This document shows positions 115 through 8,055 of a stretch of 64,000 nucleotides of DNA, one piece after another. Each line of letters starts with the position of its first letter. Within the stretch, counting starts at the first letter, position 1. Position numbers and translations under genes: made by a program. Below the pieces are notes generated by a model. The model was given only the letters and a program-made list of their open reading frames with translations. It was not told the DNA's origin and ran no database searches. Origin of the DNA: Pseudomonas coleopterorum (GTDB lineage Bacteria; Pseudomonadota; Gammaproteobacteria; Pseudomonadales; Pseudomonadaceae); assembly GCF_900105555.1 (NCBI RefSeq), contig NZ_FNTZ01000001.1, forward strand, positions 3,413,501-3,477,500. Direction: 5' to 3'.

Positions 115-1047
115 TTACTGTCGTTTGAGTAACGTACTGGGCGAAACCCCGAACGCTTTCTTGAAGGCATGGCTGAAATGCGAGAAATCGGAAAAGCCAT
201 AGTCCAGTGCCACCTGCGACACGGAACGGGCCTGGCCGCATTCGATCGCTTCGCGGCTGCGTTGCAGCCTCACCTGCCAGAGCGCCGCCATGGGGGTTTT
301 CTGGTGGCGGGCGAAAGCACGGGTGACCGTTCGTGGTGACACATGGTGGGCTTGTGCGATGCGCTCCACGCTCAATTCTGTCTCGGCCAAATGACGCAAC
401 ATGTAGTTCATGGCACGGGCATACAAGTCGCGCTCAATACTGGCGGTGTTGCTGTCCTGCAACTCCAGACTCAGCACCAGCAGATCCAGCAGCGTTTGCG
501 AGAACCGCCCGGCCACCTCCGGCGCCTCCAGGGCCGCAGGCTGGGTAGCGGCCTGGCGCAGCATTTCGCGCAGCGGCACTACGCCAGGACGCCCTTCGTC
601 GAGGACGGTAGAGGTCAAACGCTCTACCTGCGGTAAGCGGCTGCTGAGCAGGTGCCGGGGAATGCGCATGAGATGGTTGTCGCGACCTCCCAGGCTGAAG
701 CGAAAGGTCTGCGCGGCGTCGTAGAGCACCAGGCTGCCGGGCTGCAACAACGCGTTACGCCCGCCTTGCTCCAACTTGCCATGGCCATGCTCGATAAAAC
801 CCAGCCACAGGTCGTCATCCGGACCGGTGCGCAGGTCGCCGGGCTTGCGCTCCCACTCATGCAGCGCGGCGCTCAGCGAGCAGATATCCAGCGGGCCGAG
901 GCCTTGCACGCGTAATTGGCCCTCGAACGGCATGTCCTCCAGGGCTTTACTGGAAGCCGGAATGCAGTGTCGGCAGATCACTTCCTTCCAGTAATCGAAA
1001 CGCTGCGGGGCAGCGACGGCCAGGGTGGTGTAAGCGGCTTGGCTCAT
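115..1047 (-). CDS. AraC/XylS-family transcriptional regulator of the aldoxime-nitrile cluster
   Basis: A 310-residue cytoplasmic DNA-binding regulator. Residues about 1-190 form an AraC-binding-like sensor domain. Residues about 205-310 carry the two helix-turn-helix motifs of the AraC/XylS class, with the recognisable stretches LSVERIAQAHHVSPRTVTRA and VALDYGFSDFSHFSHAFKKA. It is transcribed away from the aldoxime dehydratase operon across a 320-bp gap, the usual layout for an activator that responds to the pathway substrate. The inducer cannot be read from sequence; an aldoxime, nitrile or amide is inferred from context. Family assignment is secure and the target genes are inferred. Confidence 0.9.
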   Translation of the reverse strand: MSQAAYTTLAVAAPQRFDYWKEVICRHCIPASSKALEDMPFEGQLRVQGLGPLDICSLSAALHEWERKPGDLRTGPDDDLWLGFIEHGHGKLEQGGRNALLQPGSLVLYDAAQTFRFSLGGRDNHLMRIPRHLLSSRLPQVERLTSTVLDEGRPGVVPLREMLRQAATQPAALEAPEVAGRFSQTLLDLLVLSLELQDSNTASIERDLYARAMNYMLRHLAETELSVERIAQAHHVSPRTVTRAFARHQKTPMAALWQVRLQRSREAIECGQARSVSQVALDYGFSDFSHFSHAFKKAFGVSPSTLLKRQ

Positions 1048-1553: not shown

Positions 1554-2609
1554 ATGGAATCTGCAATCGACAAGCATCTGAAATGCCCACGCACGCTGTC
1601 CCGCCGTGTGGACGACGACTATCAGCCGCCGTTTCCCATGTTCGTCGGCCGTGCCGACCCCAAGCTCGAACAGGTGGTCATGGCTTATCTGGGCGTGCAG
1701 TTCCTGCCCGTCCACCATGCCATCGCGGTCCAGGCCATGCAAAAGATCGTCGCGCAGTTCGCCGGCGATGATGCCCCGGGCAATCACGACATCACCTATC
1801 ACGAGGACAACCAAGGCTACGGTAATTTCATCGTGGTCGGTTACTGGGCCGACCCTGCCGCCTACTGTCGCTGGCTGCGCAGCCCTGCGGTCGAGTCATG
1901 GTGGGCCAGCGACGAGCGCCTGAGCGAGCACCTGGGCTACTTCCGAGAAGTAGTGGCACCGCGCGCCGAGCAATTCGAAACCTTGTACGCCTTTACCGAT
2001 GACTTGCCCGGCGTGGGCGCCGTCATGGACGGCATCAGCGGTGAAATTCAGGAGCATGGCTACTGGGGGTCGGCGCGAGACCGATTTCCCGTGTCGCAAA
2101 CCGACCGGATGCGACCCGACGCGTCCCTGCAGGTCATCTCGGGCGATCCGGCAAAAGGCGGACGAGTGCTGGTCCGCGGCCACGACAACCTGACCCTGAT
2201 CCGCTCCGGGCAGGACTGGGTCGAGGCCGGTGAGGAAGAGCGCGCGCTGTACTTTCAGGAAATGCTCCCACCGCTCCAGGACGGCATGGATTTCCTGCGC
2301 GACCAAGGCCAGGCCCTTGGCTGCTACAGCAACCGTTTCGTGCGCAACGTCGACCTTGACGGCAATCTGCTGGACATCGCCTACGACATTGGCCATTGGC
2401 GCTCGCTCGACCGGCTGGAGCGGTGGGCCGAATCGCACCCGACCCATCTGCGCATTTTCACCACGTTCTTCAGGGTGATTGGCGGGCTCTCGAAACTGCG
2501 CCTGTACCACGAAGTATCGGTCAGCGACGGTCGCAACCAGTTGTTCGAGTACATCAACTGCCATGCCCAGACCGGCATGCTACGCGACGCCCAACCCCTG
2601 CCTGCCTGA
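1554..2609 (+). CDS. oxdA: Heme-containing aldoxime dehydratase
   Basis: Dehydrates aldoximes (R-CH=N-OH) to nitriles in the cytoplasm, using heme bound directly to the substrate nitrogen. The 351-residue protein resembles P. chlororaphis B23 OxdA (352 aa) almost end to end, as I recall that sequence. With a one-residue offset, all key positions are present: Arg177 (OxdA R178), Ser218 (S219), the proximal heme ligand His298 (H299, in PTHLRIF) and the catalytic His319 (H320, in LYHEVSV). The ATG at 1554 was chosen because AAGGAG lies just upstream and MESAIDKHLK matches the known N-terminus. It provides nitrile for the nitrile hydratase downstream. Confidence 0.96.
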   Translation: MESAIDKHLKCPRTLSRRVDDDYQPPFPMFVGRADPKLEQVVMAYLGVQFLPVHHAIAVQAMQKIVAQFAGDDAPGNHDITYHEDNQGYGNFIVVGYWADPAAYCRWLRSPAVESWWASDERLSEHLGYFREVVAPRAEQFETLYAFTDDLPGVGAVMDGISGEIQEHGYWGSARDRFPVSQTDRMRPDASLQVISGDPAKGGRVLVRGHDNLTLIRSGQDWVEAGEEERALYFQEMLPPLQDGMDFLRDQGQALGCYSNRFVRNVDLDGNLLDIAYDIGHWRSLDRLERWAESHPTHLRIFTTFFRVIGGLSKLRLYHEVSVSDGRNQLFEYINCHAQTGMLRDAQPLPA

Positions 2610-2674
2610 CCGGCGGCAATCCTCTGCGCTCAAGCCCACATCCCGCCTGGCGGGGTGCTGGCCCCCGTTTGTCC

Positions 2675-3562
2675 ATGAAAAGGTGCTCGGCCATGGCCAC
2701 GATTCGTTACCCCATCACGCTCGCCTCACTGTGCTGCTCGCTTACCGCTCAGGCCGCTGAAGTGGCTCCGGGCGATTACGACCAGTTCCCCACCAACGCC
2801 ACCATTGGCTTGCTCTATTACCAACACGCCCGCACCGACAATCTGTATGCCAATGGCCACAAAGCCAGCTCGGATTTCGATGTGCGCTCGGACATCGGCA
2901 TCCTGCGACTGCTGCATGTCTATGCGCTGACCGACCGACTCACGGTCGACCCGCAGTTCCTCTTGCCTTTCGGTCGCGTCGCCGGCCATGGCGATGCCTC
3001 GCCCCTCGGGGACAGCAATGGCATCGGCGACCTGATCCTGGCCCCCGCTTTCAAGTACCGGCTCAATGACGCCGGCGACGTGCTTGCCTTCACGCCCTAC
3101 CTGTACGTACCCACTGGCGAATACGACAACGAAGAAGGCCTGAACCTGGGCGAGCATCGCTGGAAACTCGATCTGCAATCAGCCTATGTCAAACGGTTCG
3201 GAGAGAAATGGGCCGTCGACATGGTCGGCGACGTCATCTGGTACGGCGACAACAACGACTACGGCGCCGACTCGGTCCGACGCGAGCAGCAGGTGTTCTA
3301 CAGCGCCCAACTCATGGGCCGCTACATGCCCACACCACAGACCGCCTTCGCCGTAGGCGTAGGCCATAACTGGGGCGGTGAGAACAGCGTCGACGGCGTG
3401 CATCAGGACGATGAAACCCGCACCACGTATTTGCGCCTCAGCGCCACCACCTTTGTCAGCCCGCGCGATCAGTTGCAGTTGCAACTGGGCCAGGACCTGT
3501 CCGTGGAAAACGGCCCGCGTGAAGACGTGCGAGTGAACCTGCGCTACGCCCATGTGTTTTGA
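2675..3562 (+). CDS. Outer-membrane beta-barrel channel of the MetA/phenol-degradation (PF13557-like) type
   Basis: A 295-residue predicted exported protein. The first 28 or so residues look like a Sec signal peptide (MKRCSAMATIRYPITLASLC, with likely cleavage after AQA). The remainder has alternating polar/hydrophobic strands rich in Tyr and Gly and ends in Phe (RYAHVF), the usual outer-membrane barrel signature. Its pattern resembles the transporter family often found in aromatic degradation operons. Lying between oxdA and the amidase, it is inferred to admit hydrophobic aldoximes or nitriles. A second start at 2693 has the better-spaced AAAAGG sequence and would leave a shorter signal peptide. 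Confidence 0.75.
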   Translation: MKRCSAMATIRYPITLASLCCSLTAQAAEVAPGDYDQFPTNATIGLLYYQHARTDNLYANGHKASSDFDVRSDIGILRLLHVYALTDRLTVDPQFLLPFGRVAGHGDASPLGDSNGIGDLILAPAFKYRLNDAGDVLAFTPYLYVPTGEYDNEEGLNLGEHRWKLDLQSAYVKRFGEKWAVDMVGDVIWYGDNNDYGADSVRREQQVFYSAQLMGRYMPTPQTAFAVGVGHNWGGENSVDGVHQDDETRTTYLRLSATTFVSPRDQLQLQLGQDLSVENGPREDVRVNLRYAHVF

Positions 3563-3575
3563 CGGCCTGACCGTC

Positions 3576-3606
3576 TCAGCCAAGCCGCTGTCCGCCACAG
3601 CCAAGC
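3576..3606 (+). promoter_or_regulatory. Candidate AraC-type operator, copy B (upstream of amidase/nitrile hydratase)
   Basis: CAAGC half-sites start at 3581 and 3602, again 21 bp apart. CCAAGCCGCTGTCCGCC (3580-3596) matches copy A at 15 of 17 positions, including GTCCGCC at the same offset. It sits in the 128-bp gap after the outer-membrane channel gene, so the amidase and hydratase genes may have their own promoter under the same regulator. No transcription start can be assigned. Confidence 0.5.
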
Positions 3607-3690
3607 CATCGGCCGGCGGACGCGCCACTCTTGACTCCACCCGACCGTGACCCAGCGCACCCCGTGCGCCGTACCGAAACAGGACACTCC

Positions 3691-5205
3691 ATGGCCATCG
3701 AACGCCCCACTCCTGAACAACTCGACGCGCTCGCGCAGCGCCTGCACATGCATCTGACGACAGAGCAGGCGAGCGAGTATCTGGCCCTGATGCAACCGAG
3801 CTTCGACGCCTACGATCTCATCGATGCCCAGCCCGACGAAATCCCGCCGGTGCGCTACCCGCGTGACGCAGGCCTGCGCCCCAGCAAGGCCGACAACCCG
3901 CTCAACGCCTGGTACTACCGCACCGAGGTCTGCGGCGCCGCCCGAGGCAAACTGGCCGGGCGTACCGTTGCCCTGAAGGACAACATTGCCTTGGCAGGTG
4001 TACCGATGATGAACGGTGCCAGCACCCTTGAGGGCTTCGTGCCGTCCTTCGATGCCACCATTGTCAGCCGGCTGCTCGATGCGGGCGCGACCATTACCGG
4101 CAAAGCCACCTGCGAGCATTTCTGCCTGTCGGGCGGGAGTCACACCTCTGACCCGGGGCCGGTGCACAACCCACGCCGACACGGCTACATCGCCGGAGGG
4201 TCCTCCTCCGGCAGCGCCGCACTGGTAGCGTCAGGGGCGGTGGACATGGCCATTGGTGGCGATCAGGGCGGCTCGATCCGAATCCCGTCAGCGTTTTGCG
4301 GCACCTACGGCATGAAGCCCACCCATGGCCTGGTGCCGTACTCCGGGATCATGCCCATTGAGGCGACAGTCGACCACGCAGGGCCCATCACCGCCAACGT
4401 GTACGACAACGCGCTGATGCTCGAAGTGATTGCCGGTGCCGACGGTCTCGATCCGCGCCAGTATGCCCCGGTGGTAGAGCTCTACACCCAGGTGCTGGAT
4501 CGCGGCGTGCGCGGGCTCAGGATCGGCGTCCTGCTGCAGGGTTTCCAACTGCCGAACCTCGATCCGCGGGTGGCCGACAAGGTCCGCTTCGCGATCGATC
4601 ATCTGCAGCAACTCGGCGCTCAGGTCAGCGAAGTGTCGATAGCCGAACACGGCCTGGCCGGCGCGCTCTGGCAACCGATCGGCTGCGAAGGGCTGACGGC
4701 GCAGATGATGCACGGCAATGGCATGGGCTTTAACTGGAAAGGTCTGTACGACGTCGCACTGCTGGACAAGCACGCCCAGTGGCGTGAAAACGCCGACGCG
4801 CTTTCGGCGACCCTCAAGCTGTGCATGTTCGTCGGCCAGTACGGTCTGGAGCGGTACCACGGTCGCTACTACGCCAAGGCACAAAACCTGGCCCGCCGCG
4901 TCCGCGCGGCCTATGACCAGGCGCTGAGTGACTACGACGTCCTGCTCATGCCCACCGTGCCGATTCTGGCCCAACCATTGCCCTCGGCGACCGCCTCGTT
5001 GACCGACTACGTGGCGCGCGCATTCGAGATGATCGGCAACACCGCGGCATTCGATGTCACCGGCCATCCGGCGATGTCGATCCCCTGTGGCCAGGTCGAG
5101 GGACTGCCAGTCGGCATGATGCTGGTGGCGCGTCATTACGGCGAAAGCACGCTGTATCAAGCCGCCGCCGCCTTCGAGGCCAGTATCGACTGGCAACACC
5201 TGTGA
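3691..5205 (+). CDS. Amidase-signature enantioselective amidase (nitrile pathway)
   Basis: Hydrolyses the amide made by nitrile hydratase to carboxylate and ammonia in the cytoplasm. The 504-residue protein has the full amidase signature: Lys96 (ALKDNIA), cis-Ser171 (GGSSSGS) and nucleophile Ser195 ([12 protein letters not shown]). These are the same residue numbers I recall for Rhodococcus amidases linked to nitrile hydratase, and length matches that group (about 505-520). The ATG at 3691 is chosen by homology; the longer frame upstream lacks family features. It ends 10 bp before the hydratase alpha gene, so the genes are probably cotranscribed. Substrate range cannot be read from sequence. 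Confidence 0.93.
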
Positions 5206-5215
5206 GGATCCAGCA

Positions 5216-5854
5216 ATGAGCCATGACCACGATCATCATCACGACCATACCGAACCGCCCGCCACCGCGGAGCTGCGCATCAAGGCCCTTGAGTCGCTGC
5301 TGCTGGACAAAGGCCTGGTCGACCCTGCCGCCCTGGAGGCGCTGATCGACACCTACGAGCATCAGATCGGTCCGCGCAACGGCGCGCGCGTAGTGGCAAA
5401 GGCCTGGGTCGACCCGCAGTACAAACGTCGCCTGCTGGAAAACGCCACCGCGGCCATCGCCGAGCTGGGCTTTTCCGGCGTGCAGGGCGAGGAGATGGTG
5501 GTAGTGGAAAATACCCCTCAAGTGCACAACGTCACCGTGTGCACGCTCTGTTCGTGCTACCCCTGGCCCACGCTCGGCCTGCCGCCTGCCTGGTACAAAT
5601 CCGCCCCTTACCGCTCGCGCGTGGTGATCGACCCGCGTGGCGTGTTGGCTGAATTCGGACTACAGATCCCTGCCCATCAGGAGGTACGCGTCTGGGACAG
5701 CAGCGCCGACCTGCGTTACCTGGTACTGCCCGAACAGCCCTCAGGCACAGAGGGGTGGAGCGAAGAGCGCCTGAGCGAGCTGGTCACCCGCGACGCAATG
5801 ATCGGCACCGGCCTGCCCATCGCACCCGTCGCCTCAGAGGAGGTCGTCCAATGA
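5216..5854 (+). CDS. nthA: Nitrile hydratase alpha subunit, cobalt type
   Basis: Metal-bearing subunit of the enzyme that hydrates nitriles to amides. The metal claw is VCTLCSC at residues 108-114 (Cys109, Cys112, Ser113, Cys114). Thr110 is diagnostic of the non-corrin cobalt class, since iron enzymes have Ser there. The mature enzyme oxidises Cys112 and Cys114 to sulfinic and sulfenic acids. The 212-residue sequence closely resembles P. putida 5B-type alpha chains, including the His/Asp-rich N-terminus ([11 protein letters not shown]), which might hold metal. A GAGGA sequence precedes the start, and the stop overlaps the beta start by 4 nt (ATGA). Confidence 0.96.
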
Positions 5855-6504
5855 ACGGAATACATGATCTGGGTGGGTTGCATGGCTTCGGCCCGGTACT
5901 GGCTGAAGAAGATGAACCGGTCTTTCACCATGACTGGGAGCGCCGAATCTTTCCGCTGTTTGCCGCGCTGTTTGCCGGAGGGCATTTCAATGTCGACGAG
6001 TTCCGCCATTCCATCGAGCGCATGGACCCGATCCACTACCTGGAGAGCAGCTACTACGAGCACTGGCTACACGCCTTCGAGACACTGCTGCTGGAAAAGG
6101 GTGTGATCAGCGCAGCCGAATTGCAAGGACGGTCTGCACCGACTCCAGCGCCACAACCGGTTCAGGTGCTCACCGCAGATCTGGTGGAGACAGTGATTCT
6201 CGGCGGCGCCTCGGCACGCGCCAAGCACGAGGTGTCCGGACGCTTCAAGGTCGGCGACAGGGTGCGGGCGAAGAACCTCAACCCCACCACTCATATCCGT
6301 CTGCCTCGCTATGCGCGGGGCAAGGTCGGCGTCATCGAACTGGCCCATGGTGCGTTCGCAACGCCCGACAGCATGGCCCACGGCTTGGGTGAGCAACCGC
6401 AACACGTCTACACCGTACGGTTCAGCGCCGAAGAACTGTGGGGCACAGCCACCCCGGACTCGGTGTGCATCGACCTGTGGGACAACTATCTGGAGGCGGC
6501 ATGA
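5851..6504 (+). CDS. nthB: Nitrile hydratase beta subunit
   Basis: Partner of the alpha subunit in the alpha2-beta2 (or alpha-beta) hydratase; it lines the active site. The 217-residue protein begins with the family hallmark [16 protein letters not shown]. It has EFRHSIERM around residue 50 and [10 protein letters not shown] around residue 150; these supply the conserved arginines that hydrogen-bond the oxidised cysteines. The C-terminal half is the SH3-like barrel ending DLWDNYLE. Start and stop overlap neighbours by 4 nt (ATGA) on both sides, so alpha, beta and the accessory protein are translationally coupled. The N-terminal third is homologous to the next gene product. Confidence 0.95.
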
Positions 6505-6932
6505 ACACGACCCCACACAGTGATTACGCAACCCTCGGCCTCCCGCTGGACACCGAAGGACCGATTTTCGAGCATCCCTGGCAGGCTCAGGCCTTTTCCC
6601 TGGTGGTGCACCTGCACCAGGCAGGCCATTTCAGCTGGGCCCAGTGGGTGCAAGTCTTCAGCGATCAGATCAAGGCAACTCCCGCTCGGCCGGGCGAAAG
6701 CGTCAACGATGCCTACTTCCGACAGTGGTCCGATGCCATGGAAACCCTGGTGGAGACGCTTGGCCTGTGCGGGCGGGATACCATTTCCCAGTGTGCCGAG
6801 GAGTGGTGTCGAGCCTACCTCAATACGCCCCATGGAGAACCCGTGAACCTGCTGAACGCGAGTTGTCCGCCAGCCCATGCCCACCCTCATTCACGGCGCA
6901 CCGGGCCGGTCACGGTCAGCCCGGCGGGCTGA
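6501..6932 (+). CDS. Nitrile hydratase accessory/activator protein (P14K-like, beta-N-terminal homologue)
   Basis: A 143-residue protein related to the first ~100 residues of the beta subunit (FEHPWQAQAFSLVVHLHQAG, then WVQVFSDQI and YFRQWSDAMETL). Small activators of this kind bind alpha and deliver cobalt by subunit exchange (self-subunit swapping). Position directly after beta, with a 4-nt overlap, fits that role. The C-terminus is distinctive: one Cys followed by HAHPH (about residues 125-133), a possible metal-binding tail. No P47K-type iron activator and no cobalt permease is seen nearby, so this is the only visible maturation factor. Confidence 0.85.
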   Translation: MNTTPHSDYATLGLPLDTEGPIFEHPWQAQAFSLVVHLHQAGHFSWAQWVQVFSDQIKATPARPGESVNDAYFRQWSDAMETLVETLGLCGRDTISQCAEEWCRAYLNTPHGEPVNLLNASCPPAHAHPHSRRTGPVTVSPAG

Positions 6933-7000
6933 GATGAAATGAGCGGTGCAGAAACGTCTGCATCAGCCGATTGGATCGCTTTGCTGTCGAGAGGTGTCGC

Positions 7001-7348
7001 GTGTCGTTTCTCTTTGGTTCTATCCGTAGTGCGCTGACGGCCTTGGCGAACCGCTTGGAAGGCAGTGACGCGCCCCTGCCAACGGCACCCACCCCCTGTT
7101 ACAGCGACTGTTCAGGGCCAGCGAGCAACTGCTTGCCGATCAAACCCACGCCAGGGGGCGGATCGCCGAGTGCGGTCCCACGGTGCACCAGCAATCTACT
7201 GGCATTGAACGCGGCGATCGAAGCGGCTCGTGCCGGGGAGGCCGGCAAGGCCGGGCGTGGATTCGCCGTGGTCGCCGACGAGGTGCGGAAACTGGTCATG
7301 CGGACCAGCAAAGCGACCCAGGAGGCATCTGGAATGATCGCCGGCTAA
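7001..7348 (+). pseudogene. Frameshifted and internally deleted methyl-accepting chemotaxis protein remnant
   Basis: The last third encodes [15 protein letters not shown] followed by [14 protein letters not shown], the highly conserved signalling hairpin tip of chemoreceptors, then stops. The N-terminal piece ([20 protein letters not shown] from a GTG at 7001, with GAGAGGTG upstream) looks like the start of a short soluble-type receptor. Between them the reading jumps frame: a second frame around 7106-7168 gives [20 protein letters not shown], which looks like coiled-coil continuation. Most of the ~200-residue signalling domain is missing. [10 protein letters not shown] also seems to carry a three-residue duplication. 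It is very unlikely to signal. Confidence 0.75.
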
Positions 7349-7384: not shown

Positions 7385-7414
7385 GGCGATACACTTTTTT
7401 GGGGAGGTATCGCC
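7385..7414 (-). terminator. Hairpin just after the thymidylate kinase gene
   Basis: A perfect 8-bp stem (7385-7392 with 7407-7414) encloses a 14-nt loop and abuts the stop codon of the leftward kinase gene. There is no T-tract on the minus strand after the stem, so it is only a weak terminator candidate or an mRNA-stabilising hairpin. Confidence 0.4.
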
Positions 7415-8055
7415 TAACCGATCCCTTTTTCAGTCAGCAGATTTGCAACGACGGCCAGAACGTTACCGCTCACCACGTCGAACGGCTCTGATGCATCGAT
7501 GACCACGAATGTGTCAGGCGTCTCCTCTGCCTGCCGCAGGAATCCGTCACGGGCCCTGGAGAGGAACTCGAGCTTCTGCCTCTCCATCCGGTCCAGCCCC
7601 TGGCCGCGGGAAGCGACGCGCTTCATGCCGATCTCGGGATCCACATCCAGGATGATGTTGAGGTCCGGTGCAAAGCCCCCCAGCGCAAAGCCGTTGATGC
7701 TTCGCACCAGGTCCAACGCAATGCCCCGTCCGTAGTGCTGGAACGCCACGGTTGCAGGGGTGAAGCGATCGCACACCACGACCTTGCCTGCCGCTATCGC
7801 AGGAATGATCTTTTCCTGCAGATGCTGTGCTCTGGCGGCGGCGAACAGCAAAAGCTCAGTGGTATCGCAGAGTTCTGGCGTCTCCGGATCAAGGACCACC
7901 TCGCGAATCTTCTCGCCGATCCGTGTACCGCCAGGCTCGCGGGTAATGACCACCGGGTGGTTCCTGGCGGTCAGGAATTCTTCGATGGCGCGAATCACGG
8001 AAGACTTGCCCGCCCCGTTATTTCCGTCGCATACGATGAGGCAACCTTTTGCCAT
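7414..8055 (-). CDS. tmk: Divergent thymidylate kinase (dTMP kinase family)
   Basis: Predicted to phosphorylate dTMP to dTDP. The 213-residue protein has the P-loop GNNGAGKSS (residues 11-19), the TREPGGT motif, the DRF motif (CDRFTPATVAFQ) and a LID segment RGQGLDRMERQ. It sits after mltG, where Pseudomonas tmk normally is. Its sequence is unlike the usual Pseudomonas enzyme, which as I recall has a GPEGAGKST loop. It is separated from mltG by about 100 bp, and no holB/pilZ/tatD follows as expected. It may be a replacement or a second, acquired copy. Activity on dTMP is likely, but another nucleotide monophosphate is possible. Confidence 0.82.
   Translation of the reverse strand: MAKGCLIVCDGNNGAGKSSVIRAIEEFLTARNHPVVITREPGGTRIGEKIREVVLDPETPELCDTTELLLFAAARAQHLQEKIIPAIAAGKVVVCDRFTPATVAFQHYGRGIALDLVRSINGFALGGFAPDLNIILDVDPEIGMKRVASRGQGLDRMERQKLEFLSRARDGFLRQAEETPDTFVVIDASEPFDVVSGNVLAVVANLLTEKGIG

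What the first reader, a model, noticed from the sequence alone, without database searches (positions are those of the whole stretch)
1554..6932. Aldoxime-to-acid pathway with a cobalt-type rather than iron-type nitrile hydratase
OxdA is nearly the P. chlororaphis B23 type, whose cluster (as I recall) carries an iron nitrile hydratase with a P47K activator. Here the alpha claw reads CTLCSC (cobalt type), the alpha chain resembles P. putida 5B, and the maturation gene is a P14K-like beta homologue. The cluster looks like a hybrid of an oxdA module and a cobalt hydratase module.
Basis: partly seen in the sequence, partly recalled or inferred. Interest (0 to 1): 0.7.

Follow-up and report, generated by a model that had tools for sequence, protein, structure and literature searches.

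The report
Aldoxime operon with cobalt nitrile hydratase
A Pseudomonas gene cluster that should turn aldoximes into acids carries a cobalt-type version of one enzyme instead of the textbook iron type; this turns out to be a common arrangement, and cobalt and iron versions appear to have been swapped in and out of otherwise similar clusters several times.

Summary
Window 1554-6932 encodes OxdA, a channel, an amidase, nitrile hydratase alpha (CTLCSCY) and beta, and a P14K-type accessory protein. Alpha and beta are closest to the solved Co-type enzyme of P. putida. "Nearly B23" is too strong: OxdA is 71% identical to B23 OxdA. Of 62 other oxd clusters with nitrile hydratase, 20 have the CTLCSCY module (15 in the window's order), 35 an iron-type module (CSLCSCT) and 7 a third form (CTLCSCT). 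Activators follow the motif: P14K-like 20/20, CobW 35/35, neither 7/7. A cobalt-transporter gene follows the accessory gene in 17/20 CTLCSCY clusters and 0/42 others; the window lacks it. The hybrid idea is half right. Metal type changes repeatedly on a shared chassis (5-6 changes on OxdA trees, 2 on the alpha tree), but the window is a typical, somewhat reduced member of the cobalt branch. It may lie in the remnant of a tmk-targeting island. Metal content is inferred, not measured.

The parts
115..1047 (-). AraC-family regulator, divergent from oxdA
   Evidence: PF12833 and PF14525; best NCBIfam match FeaR, 122 bits, below its cut-off of 199. A divergent homologue precedes oxdA in the same-order clusters.
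1554..2609 (+). OxdA, aliphatic aldoxime dehydratase, 351 aa
   Evidence: NF050090 651 bits; 71% identical to B23 OxdA; residues aligned with B23 R178, S219, H299, H320 are the same (their catalytic roles are recalled).
2675..3562 (+). Outer-membrane channel-like protein, Phenol_MetA_deg family
   Evidence: PF13557 123 bits; channel role inferred.
3691..5205 (+). Amidase, 504 aa
   Evidence: NF005565/PRK07235 840 bits; PF01425.
5216..5854 (+). Nitrile hydratase alpha, cobalt-type claw VCTLCSCY
   Evidence: TIGR01323; nearest structure 3qxe_A, Co-type.
5851..6504 (+). Nitrile hydratase beta
   Evidence: TIGR03888; nearest structure 3qxe_B; Trp at position 72, the residue of at least 90% of the cobalt rows.
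6501..6932 (+). P14K-type nitrile hydratase accessory protein (beta-N homologue), 143 aa
   Evidence: TIGR03889 90 bits, cut-off 46; PF21006; homologue beside the module in 20 of 20 other CTLCSCY clusters and in 0 of 42 others at E 1e-5.
6971..7348 (+). Degenerate remnant of a PAS-PAS-MCP gene that follows the module in many relatives
   Evidence: About 50 C-terminal residues some 80% identical to L003's protein end, and short N-terminal pieces in two frames; the PAS part is missing.
7414..8055 (-). tmk of a foreign type; likely border of the island remnant that holds the cluster
   Evidence: 39-44% identical to tmk of same-genus relatives; this type in 2 of 398 genus genomes, own included, at E 1e-60; only PF02223 match in the genome.

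Best explanation
This is an aldoxime-to-acid operon whose nitrile-hydrating step is a cobalt-type nitrile hydratase. Working order, inferred from the families: the AraC-type regulator switches the operon on; the channel lets substrate in; heme-containing OxdA dehydrates an aldoxime to a nitrile; the alpha-beta nitrile hydratase hydrates it to an amide; the amidase releases acid and ammonia. The P14K-like protein would load cobalt and help oxidise the claw cysteines, as reported for P. putida NRRL-18668. The arrangement is common: an AraC-oxdA-channel-amidase chassis carries either a cobalt cassette (alpha, beta, P14K-like protein, usually a CbiM or CbtB/CbtA cobalt importer) or an iron cassette (alpha, beta, CobW-type activator), and these seem to have replaced each other several times. 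The window is a reduced cobalt member: no importer gene and a broken PAS-MCP gene.
For: Family models and nearest structures. Claw, activator and transporter agree across clusters: CTLCSCY with accessory 20/20, CSLCSCT with CobW 35/35, importer beside 17/20 CTLCSCY and 0/42 others. Same chassis for both cassettes: 15/20 cobalt, 30/35 iron (counted). On the careful OxdA tree of 65 rows the metal label needs 6 changes (well-supported branches alone force 4 for Fe and 4 for Co), on the amidase tree 6, on the alpha tree 2, the minimum. Fe as one clade and Co as one clade on OxdA are rejected (AU p 1.4e-4 and 1.8e-4). L003 (P. flavescens) has OxdA 81% and amidase 82% identical to the window but an iron cassette; L078 has OxdA nearest to the iron clade but a cobalt cassette.
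Against: No metal, activity or expression was measured. The window has no cobalt importer in the cluster, and the genome has no NicO or CbiM match, though it has one CbtA elsewhere. Some cobalt NHases mature without an activator (PMC7329996, passages), so the accessory's need is not certain. A quick OxdA tree of 63 rows, without the two solved OxdA that I labelled iron, needs 5 changes, and its well-supported branches force only 2 for Fe and 3 for Co; those of the amidase tree force 3 and 3. L078's place is weakly supported (84/59). OxdA and amidase trees also disagree with each other in places. Long branches (L017, L020, L004) may be misplaced. The direction of the swaps is not settled.
Confidence: 0.88

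Rival explanations
1. The window is a recent chimera: a B23-type oxdA unit that captured a P. putida 5B-type cobalt unit in this lineage.
For: B23 and Rhodococcus N-771 clusters are iron-type with P47K (PMC8955678, passages), and most NHase-bearing clusters of the genus draw are iron-type (31 of 41, own included).
Against: The window's OxdA belongs to a clade of 21 rows of which 18 are cobalt; 15 other loci have the same order; OxdA is only 71% identical to B23.
Confidence: 0.05
2. The claw motif misleads and the enzyme binds iron or takes either metal.
For: CTLCSC alone is not diagnostic: 7 clusters with CTLCSCT have alpha chains of the iron lineage (L022 alpha: 300 bits to iron-type 1ahj; best cobalt-type chains 254 for 4ob1, summed over two stretches, and 227 for 1v29), iron-like at 22 of 34 separating columns. 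The window has no importer gene.
Against: The window has CTLCSCY, the full cobalt motif used in PMC2667541 (passages), 57 of 61 cobalt residues at separating columns, a P14K-type and not a CobW activator beside it, and its alpha lies with the 21 cobalt rows on one side of a branch (SH-aLRT 100, quick tree).
Confidence: 0.06
3. The discordance between trees comes from oxdA and amidase moving between clusters while the hydratase stays put.
For: Trees show discordance, not which partner moved; oxd homologues lie on 33 plasmid records (E 1e-30).
Against: Parts shared across metal types lie on both sides: regulator, oxdA, channel and amidase upstream and the PAS-MCP gene downstream (7/20 cobalt, 20/35 iron). 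Replacing the middle is simpler.
Confidence: 0.15

Closest known systems
Pseudomonas chlororaphis B23 oxdA cluster (iron NHase with P47K)
   Same: OxdA of the same family; same pathway; amidase and two NHase subunits (PMC8955678, passages).
   Different: Cobalt-type alpha and beta, P14K-like accessory, no CobW/P47K beside it; OxdA 71% identical.
Pseudomonas putida NRRL-18668 cobalt nitrile hydratase with P14K (structure 3qxe; strain assignment recalled)
   Same: Nearest solved alpha and beta; alpha-beta-accessory order (the P. putida order is recalled).
   Different: Here linked to oxdA; whether that strain has oxdA beside it was not checked.
Pantoea vagans C9-1 plasmid pPag2 aldoxime cluster
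   Same: Same order: divergent regulator, oxd, transporter, amidase, alpha (CTLCSCY), beta, accessory.
   Different: Followed by CbtB, CbtA and a histidine phosphatase, which the window lacks.
Rhodococcus sp. YH3-3 (aldoxime degrader with a Co-type NHase)
   Same: Its characterised NHase is Co-type (PMC8955678, passages).
   Different: Different phylum; gene linkage in that strain not checked.

Membership tests
Aliphatic aldoxime dehydratase (OxdA) | Curated equivalog model above cut-off | tested here: met
   NF050090 651 bits, cut-off 600.
Aliphatic aldoxime dehydratase (OxdA) | Heme-ligand His and active-site Arg, Ser, His | tested here: met
   H298, R177, S218, H319 align with B23 H299, R178, S219, H320 (roles recalled).
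Cobalt-type nitrile hydratase | CTLCSCY claw in alpha | tested here: met
   VCTLCSCY; motif used as the cobalt signature in PMC2667541 (passages).
Cobalt-type nitrile hydratase | Groups with cobalt and not with iron enzymes | tested here: met
   Alpha tree: 21 cobalt-motif rows on one side of a branch, SH-aLRT 100 (quick tree); 31/34 and 26/27 separating residues; nearest structures Co-type.
Cobalt-type nitrile hydratase | Contains cobalt | not testable with these tools
   Needs metal analysis.
P14K-type activator | Beta-N homologue encoded after beta | tested here: met
   TIGR03889 90 bits, cut-off 46. No direct comparison with the P. putida P14K sequence was made.
P14K-type activator | Needed for maturation (subunit swapping, cobalt transfer) | not testable with these tools
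   Reported for P. putida NRRL-18668 (PMC7193024 and PMC7329996, passages).
B23-type iron cluster | Iron-type CSLCSCT alpha and CobW/P47K activator | tested here: not met
   CTLCSCY; the five listed CobW-family matches lie outside the window.
Cobalt cassette with its own importer | CbiM or CbtB/CbtA gene after the accessory gene | tested here: not met
   No match in the window or the 16 kb around its left end; 17 of 20 other CTLCSCY clusters have one.

The most novel reading that the evidence does not exclude
The nitrile-hydratase slot of aldoxime operons is an exchangeable metal cassette. Complete cobalt sets (subunits, P14K-like chaperone, cobalt importer) and iron sets (subunits, CobW chaperone) have replaced each other in place at least four times, in both directions, and a third, activator-free set with a CTLCSCT claw on an iron-lineage enzyme exists in Pseudomonas, with unknown metal.
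Probability: 0.55. Interest if true: 0.55.

Novelty: new member of a known kind. Interest (0 to 1): 0.35.

Why it matters
The window itself is ordinary: a cobalt-type member of the aldoxime-nitrile pathway. The comparison matters more. The review passages that I saw describe the NHases of the known oxd clusters as iron-type, yet 21 of the 63 NHase-bearing clusters held here, the window included, are CTLCSCY (a sample found with the window's own OxdA, so biased to its kin). The cobalt sets usually bring their own importer, so metal supply looks like part of the exchanged unit. That gives natural pairs, such as L003 against the window, for asking why a lineage would switch metal at the same pathway step, and a third class for asking what the claw residues decide.

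Tried and rejected
Considered and dropped: recent local chimera (OxdA clade and order shared with many loci); CTLCSC alone as proof of cobalt (the CTLCSCT class breaks the rule); NicO or CbiM as the genome's cobalt route (no matches); base composition as a mark of foreign origin (GC 0.617-0.650 in the bins of the cluster, 0.608-0.674 over the 16 kb). A first PAS-MCP count by a strict motif (19 of 62) was replaced by an alignment count (27 of 62; L109 counted although split). The match between the DNA beside holB and the far end of the G152 island is weak (score 33, best of 500 shuffles 29).

Literature: no searched paper states the oxd and cobalt-NHase linkage in what I saw: 13 papers listed, passages seen in 5; 3; 6; 2; 0; 1; 26 held two terms, 15 listed, passages seen in 3. 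Passages of PMC11568032, PMC12462448, PMC8230428, PMC3596284 and PMC7142416 gave no metal type for an oxd-linked NHase. The UW4 nitrile hydratase paper is not held. Most subscription papers are not held, so this does not show that the linkage is unpublished.

Rows dropped before counts: four genus loci (L074, L111, L112, L113) with the contig lengths of L013, L025, L023, L038; loci without NHase in the held DNA (15 of 41, 11 of 51), some with short flanks. The amidase tree has 62 rows (L007 has no amidase hit). The beta comparison used 59 of 63 rows, short or split hits left out. L004's accessory match is weak (25% identity, E 4.6e-6). A CobW match 8 kb from L024's oxd, on the other strand, was not counted. 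Fisher values ignore kinship. OxdA loci were sought with the window's OxdA (by six peptide patterns from it), which favours its kin.
Full report
WHAT IS THERE. The window carries an operon on the + strand: oxdA 1554-2609, an outer-membrane channel 2675-3562, an amidase 3691-5205, nitrile hydratase (NHase) alpha 5216-5854, beta 5851-6504 and an accessory gene 6501-6932, with a divergent AraC-type regulator at 115-1047. Curated models name the parts. The genome is probably a Pseudomonas: four same-genus genomes have contigs of the same length as named Pseudomonas loci (inference). It holds one NHase alpha.

METAL TYPE. The alpha claw is VCTLCSCY. Alpha and beta are closest to the Co-type structure 3qxe of P. 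putida (363 and 273 bits); the best iron-type chains score 217 (1ahj) and 136 (4fm4) (that these two are iron enzymes is recalled). At columns that separate cobalt-motif from iron-motif clusters the window has the cobalt residue in 31 of 34 (alpha) and 26 of 27 (beta); the window was itself among the cobalt rows, so this is descriptive. Metal content is inferred.

THE OXD COMPARISON. OxdA is 249/350 (71%) identical to B23 OxdA, and B23 OxdA is up to 94% identical to OxdA of iron clusters. 'Nearly B23' is too strong, although family and aligned active-site residues agree.

HOW COMMON. One scan of public genomes gave 41 oxd loci. A draw of 398 genus genomes gave matches in 49, own included, from which 51 further loci were taken. 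After four duplicates are removed, 62 loci besides the window have NHase alpha in the held DNA: 20 CTLCSCY, 35 CSLCSCT, 7 CTLCSCT. Fifteen of the 20 cobalt loci have the window's full order; 30 of the 35 iron loci have the same chassis with alpha-beta-CobW in place of alpha-beta-accessory (counted). In the genus draw alone iron dominates: 31 iron, 6 cobalt (own included), 4 CTLCSCT. The sample was found with the window's own OxdA and so leans to its kin.

INDEPENDENT SUPPORT FOR COBALT. At E 1e-5 the activator beside the module follows the claw without exception: accessory 20/20 with CTLCSCY, CobW 35/35 with CSLCSCT, neither in 7/7 CTLCSCT (L004's accessory match is weak). A predicted cobalt importer starts 38-153 bases after the accessory match in 17 of 20 cobalt loci, and in 0 of 35 iron and 0 of 7 CTLCSCT loci: a CbiM-family gene in 11 (PF01891, 58 bits, cut-off 23, for L002) and CbtB, in 5 of them with CbtA, in 6. 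Plasmid pPag2 of Pantoea vagans has CbtB and CbtA annotated in that place. The window has no importer there; its genome has one CbtA elsewhere and no NicO or CbiM match.

MODULE EXCHANGE. On a careful OxdA tree of 65 rows, which includes B23 and Rhodococcus OxdA labelled iron by me, the metal label needs 6 changes where 2 is the minimum; well-supported branches alone force 4 for Fe and 4 for Co. A quick tree of 63 rows without those two needs 5, with 2 and 3 forced. Holding Fe or Co rows as one clade is rejected (AU p 1.4e-4 and 1.8e-4). The amidase tree (62 rows, quick) needs 6 changes, 3 and 3 forced; the NHase alpha tree (63 rows, quick) needs 2. L003 (P. flavescens) lies in the window's OxdA clade, and its amidase is the window's closest by identity (82%), but it has an iron cassette. 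Herbaspirillum L012 and L014 are also iron inside that clade; L078 is cobalt beside the iron clade, with weak support (84/59). Related rows are not independent events, and the direction is not settled.

BEYOND THE COORDINATES. Downstream of the cassette many relatives carry a protein of about 429 residues with two PAS domains and the first half of an MCP signalling domain (profile 7-95 of 172): 7/20 cobalt, 20/35 iron, 0/7 CTLCSCT. The window keeps only a degenerate remnant at 6971-7348. The cluster lies between holB and tmk. In all 9 same-genus relatives where both genes passed the thresholds (10 examined) they overlap or lie within about 20 bases of each other. The window's tmk is 39-44% identical to theirs, while holB is 72-81%. 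It is the only PF02223 match in the genome (T4-type dNMP kinases were not sought), and its type occurs in 2 of 398 genus genomes, own included. In the other, G152, this tmk follows mltG and neighbours two large genes, one with a phage-integrase domain and one without a Pfam match; the host tmk there is interrupted in its P-loop region, its first codons beside mltG and the remainder about 104 kb away on the same contig. The 659-residue neighbour has no match in the window's genome at E 1e-60. A tmk-disrupting island with a substitute kinase is known in P. putida KT2440 (PMC10653934, abstract and passages), where the substitute is a T4-like dNMP kinase and the break lies further into tmk. I infer that the oxd cluster sits in a shrunken island of that sort. 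The junction upstream of the window's tmk resembles G152's (score 46, best of 500 shuffles 26), but the match at the other end is weak.

PRIOR KNOWLEDGE. PMC8955678 (outline, abstract, passages) describes the B23 and N-771 clusters as iron-type with P47K, reports the PCR-identified NHases of oxd strains as iron-type, and cites a Co-type NHase in Rhodococcus YH3-3. PMC3137637 (passages) mentions the Pantoea cluster. PMC2667541 (passages) separates CTLCSCY from CSLCSCT NHases. PMC7193024 and PMC7329996 (passages) describe activators and subunit swapping, and also NHases that mature without an activator. In what I saw, no paper states the oxd and cobalt-NHase linkage or the cassette exchange, but the library lacks most subscription papers.

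VERDICT. A cobalt-type aldoxime-nitrile operon with open reading frames throughout, and an ordinary member of a common cobalt branch. The more interesting result is comparative: repeated exchange of whole metal cassettes, and a third, activator-free class.

Noticed in passing
window 7414-8055 (-), with L043:6830-7879 (holB) and L136/L138 (genome G152): The genome's only PF02223 thymidylate kinase is of a foreign type (39-44% identical to same-genus relatives; 2 of 398 genus genomes have it). In G152 the same type lies beside an integrase-like gene, and the host tmk is interrupted in its P-loop region, its remainder about 104 kb away: a tmk-targeting island like that of P. putida KT2440, but with a true Tmk as substitute.
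   Followed up: partly
L021, L022, L023, L024, L025, L038, L110: A third NHase class in Pseudomonas oxd clusters: iron-lineage alpha with a CTLCSCT claw, Ile at beta position 72, no P14K-like or CobW activator beside it, and another gene order (channel-oxd-alpha-beta-amidase).
   Followed up: partly
window 6971-7348; L003:16422-17708; L002:16399-17685: A PAS-PAS protein with only the first half of an MCP signalling domain follows the NHase cassette in 27 of 62 loci; it may link aldoxime or nitrile metabolism to taxis. Only a remnant is left in the window.
   Followed up: partly
L002:15609-16286 and homologues in 10 other non-duplicate loci: A CbiM-family cobalt transporter gene follows the accessory gene; partner genes CbiN, CbiQ, CbiO were not looked for.
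   Followed up: no
G071 (L079, L123, L124) and G336 (L078, L116): Some genomes carry two or three oxd genes of different kinds, one with an NHase cassette and others without NHase in the held flanks.
   Followed up: no
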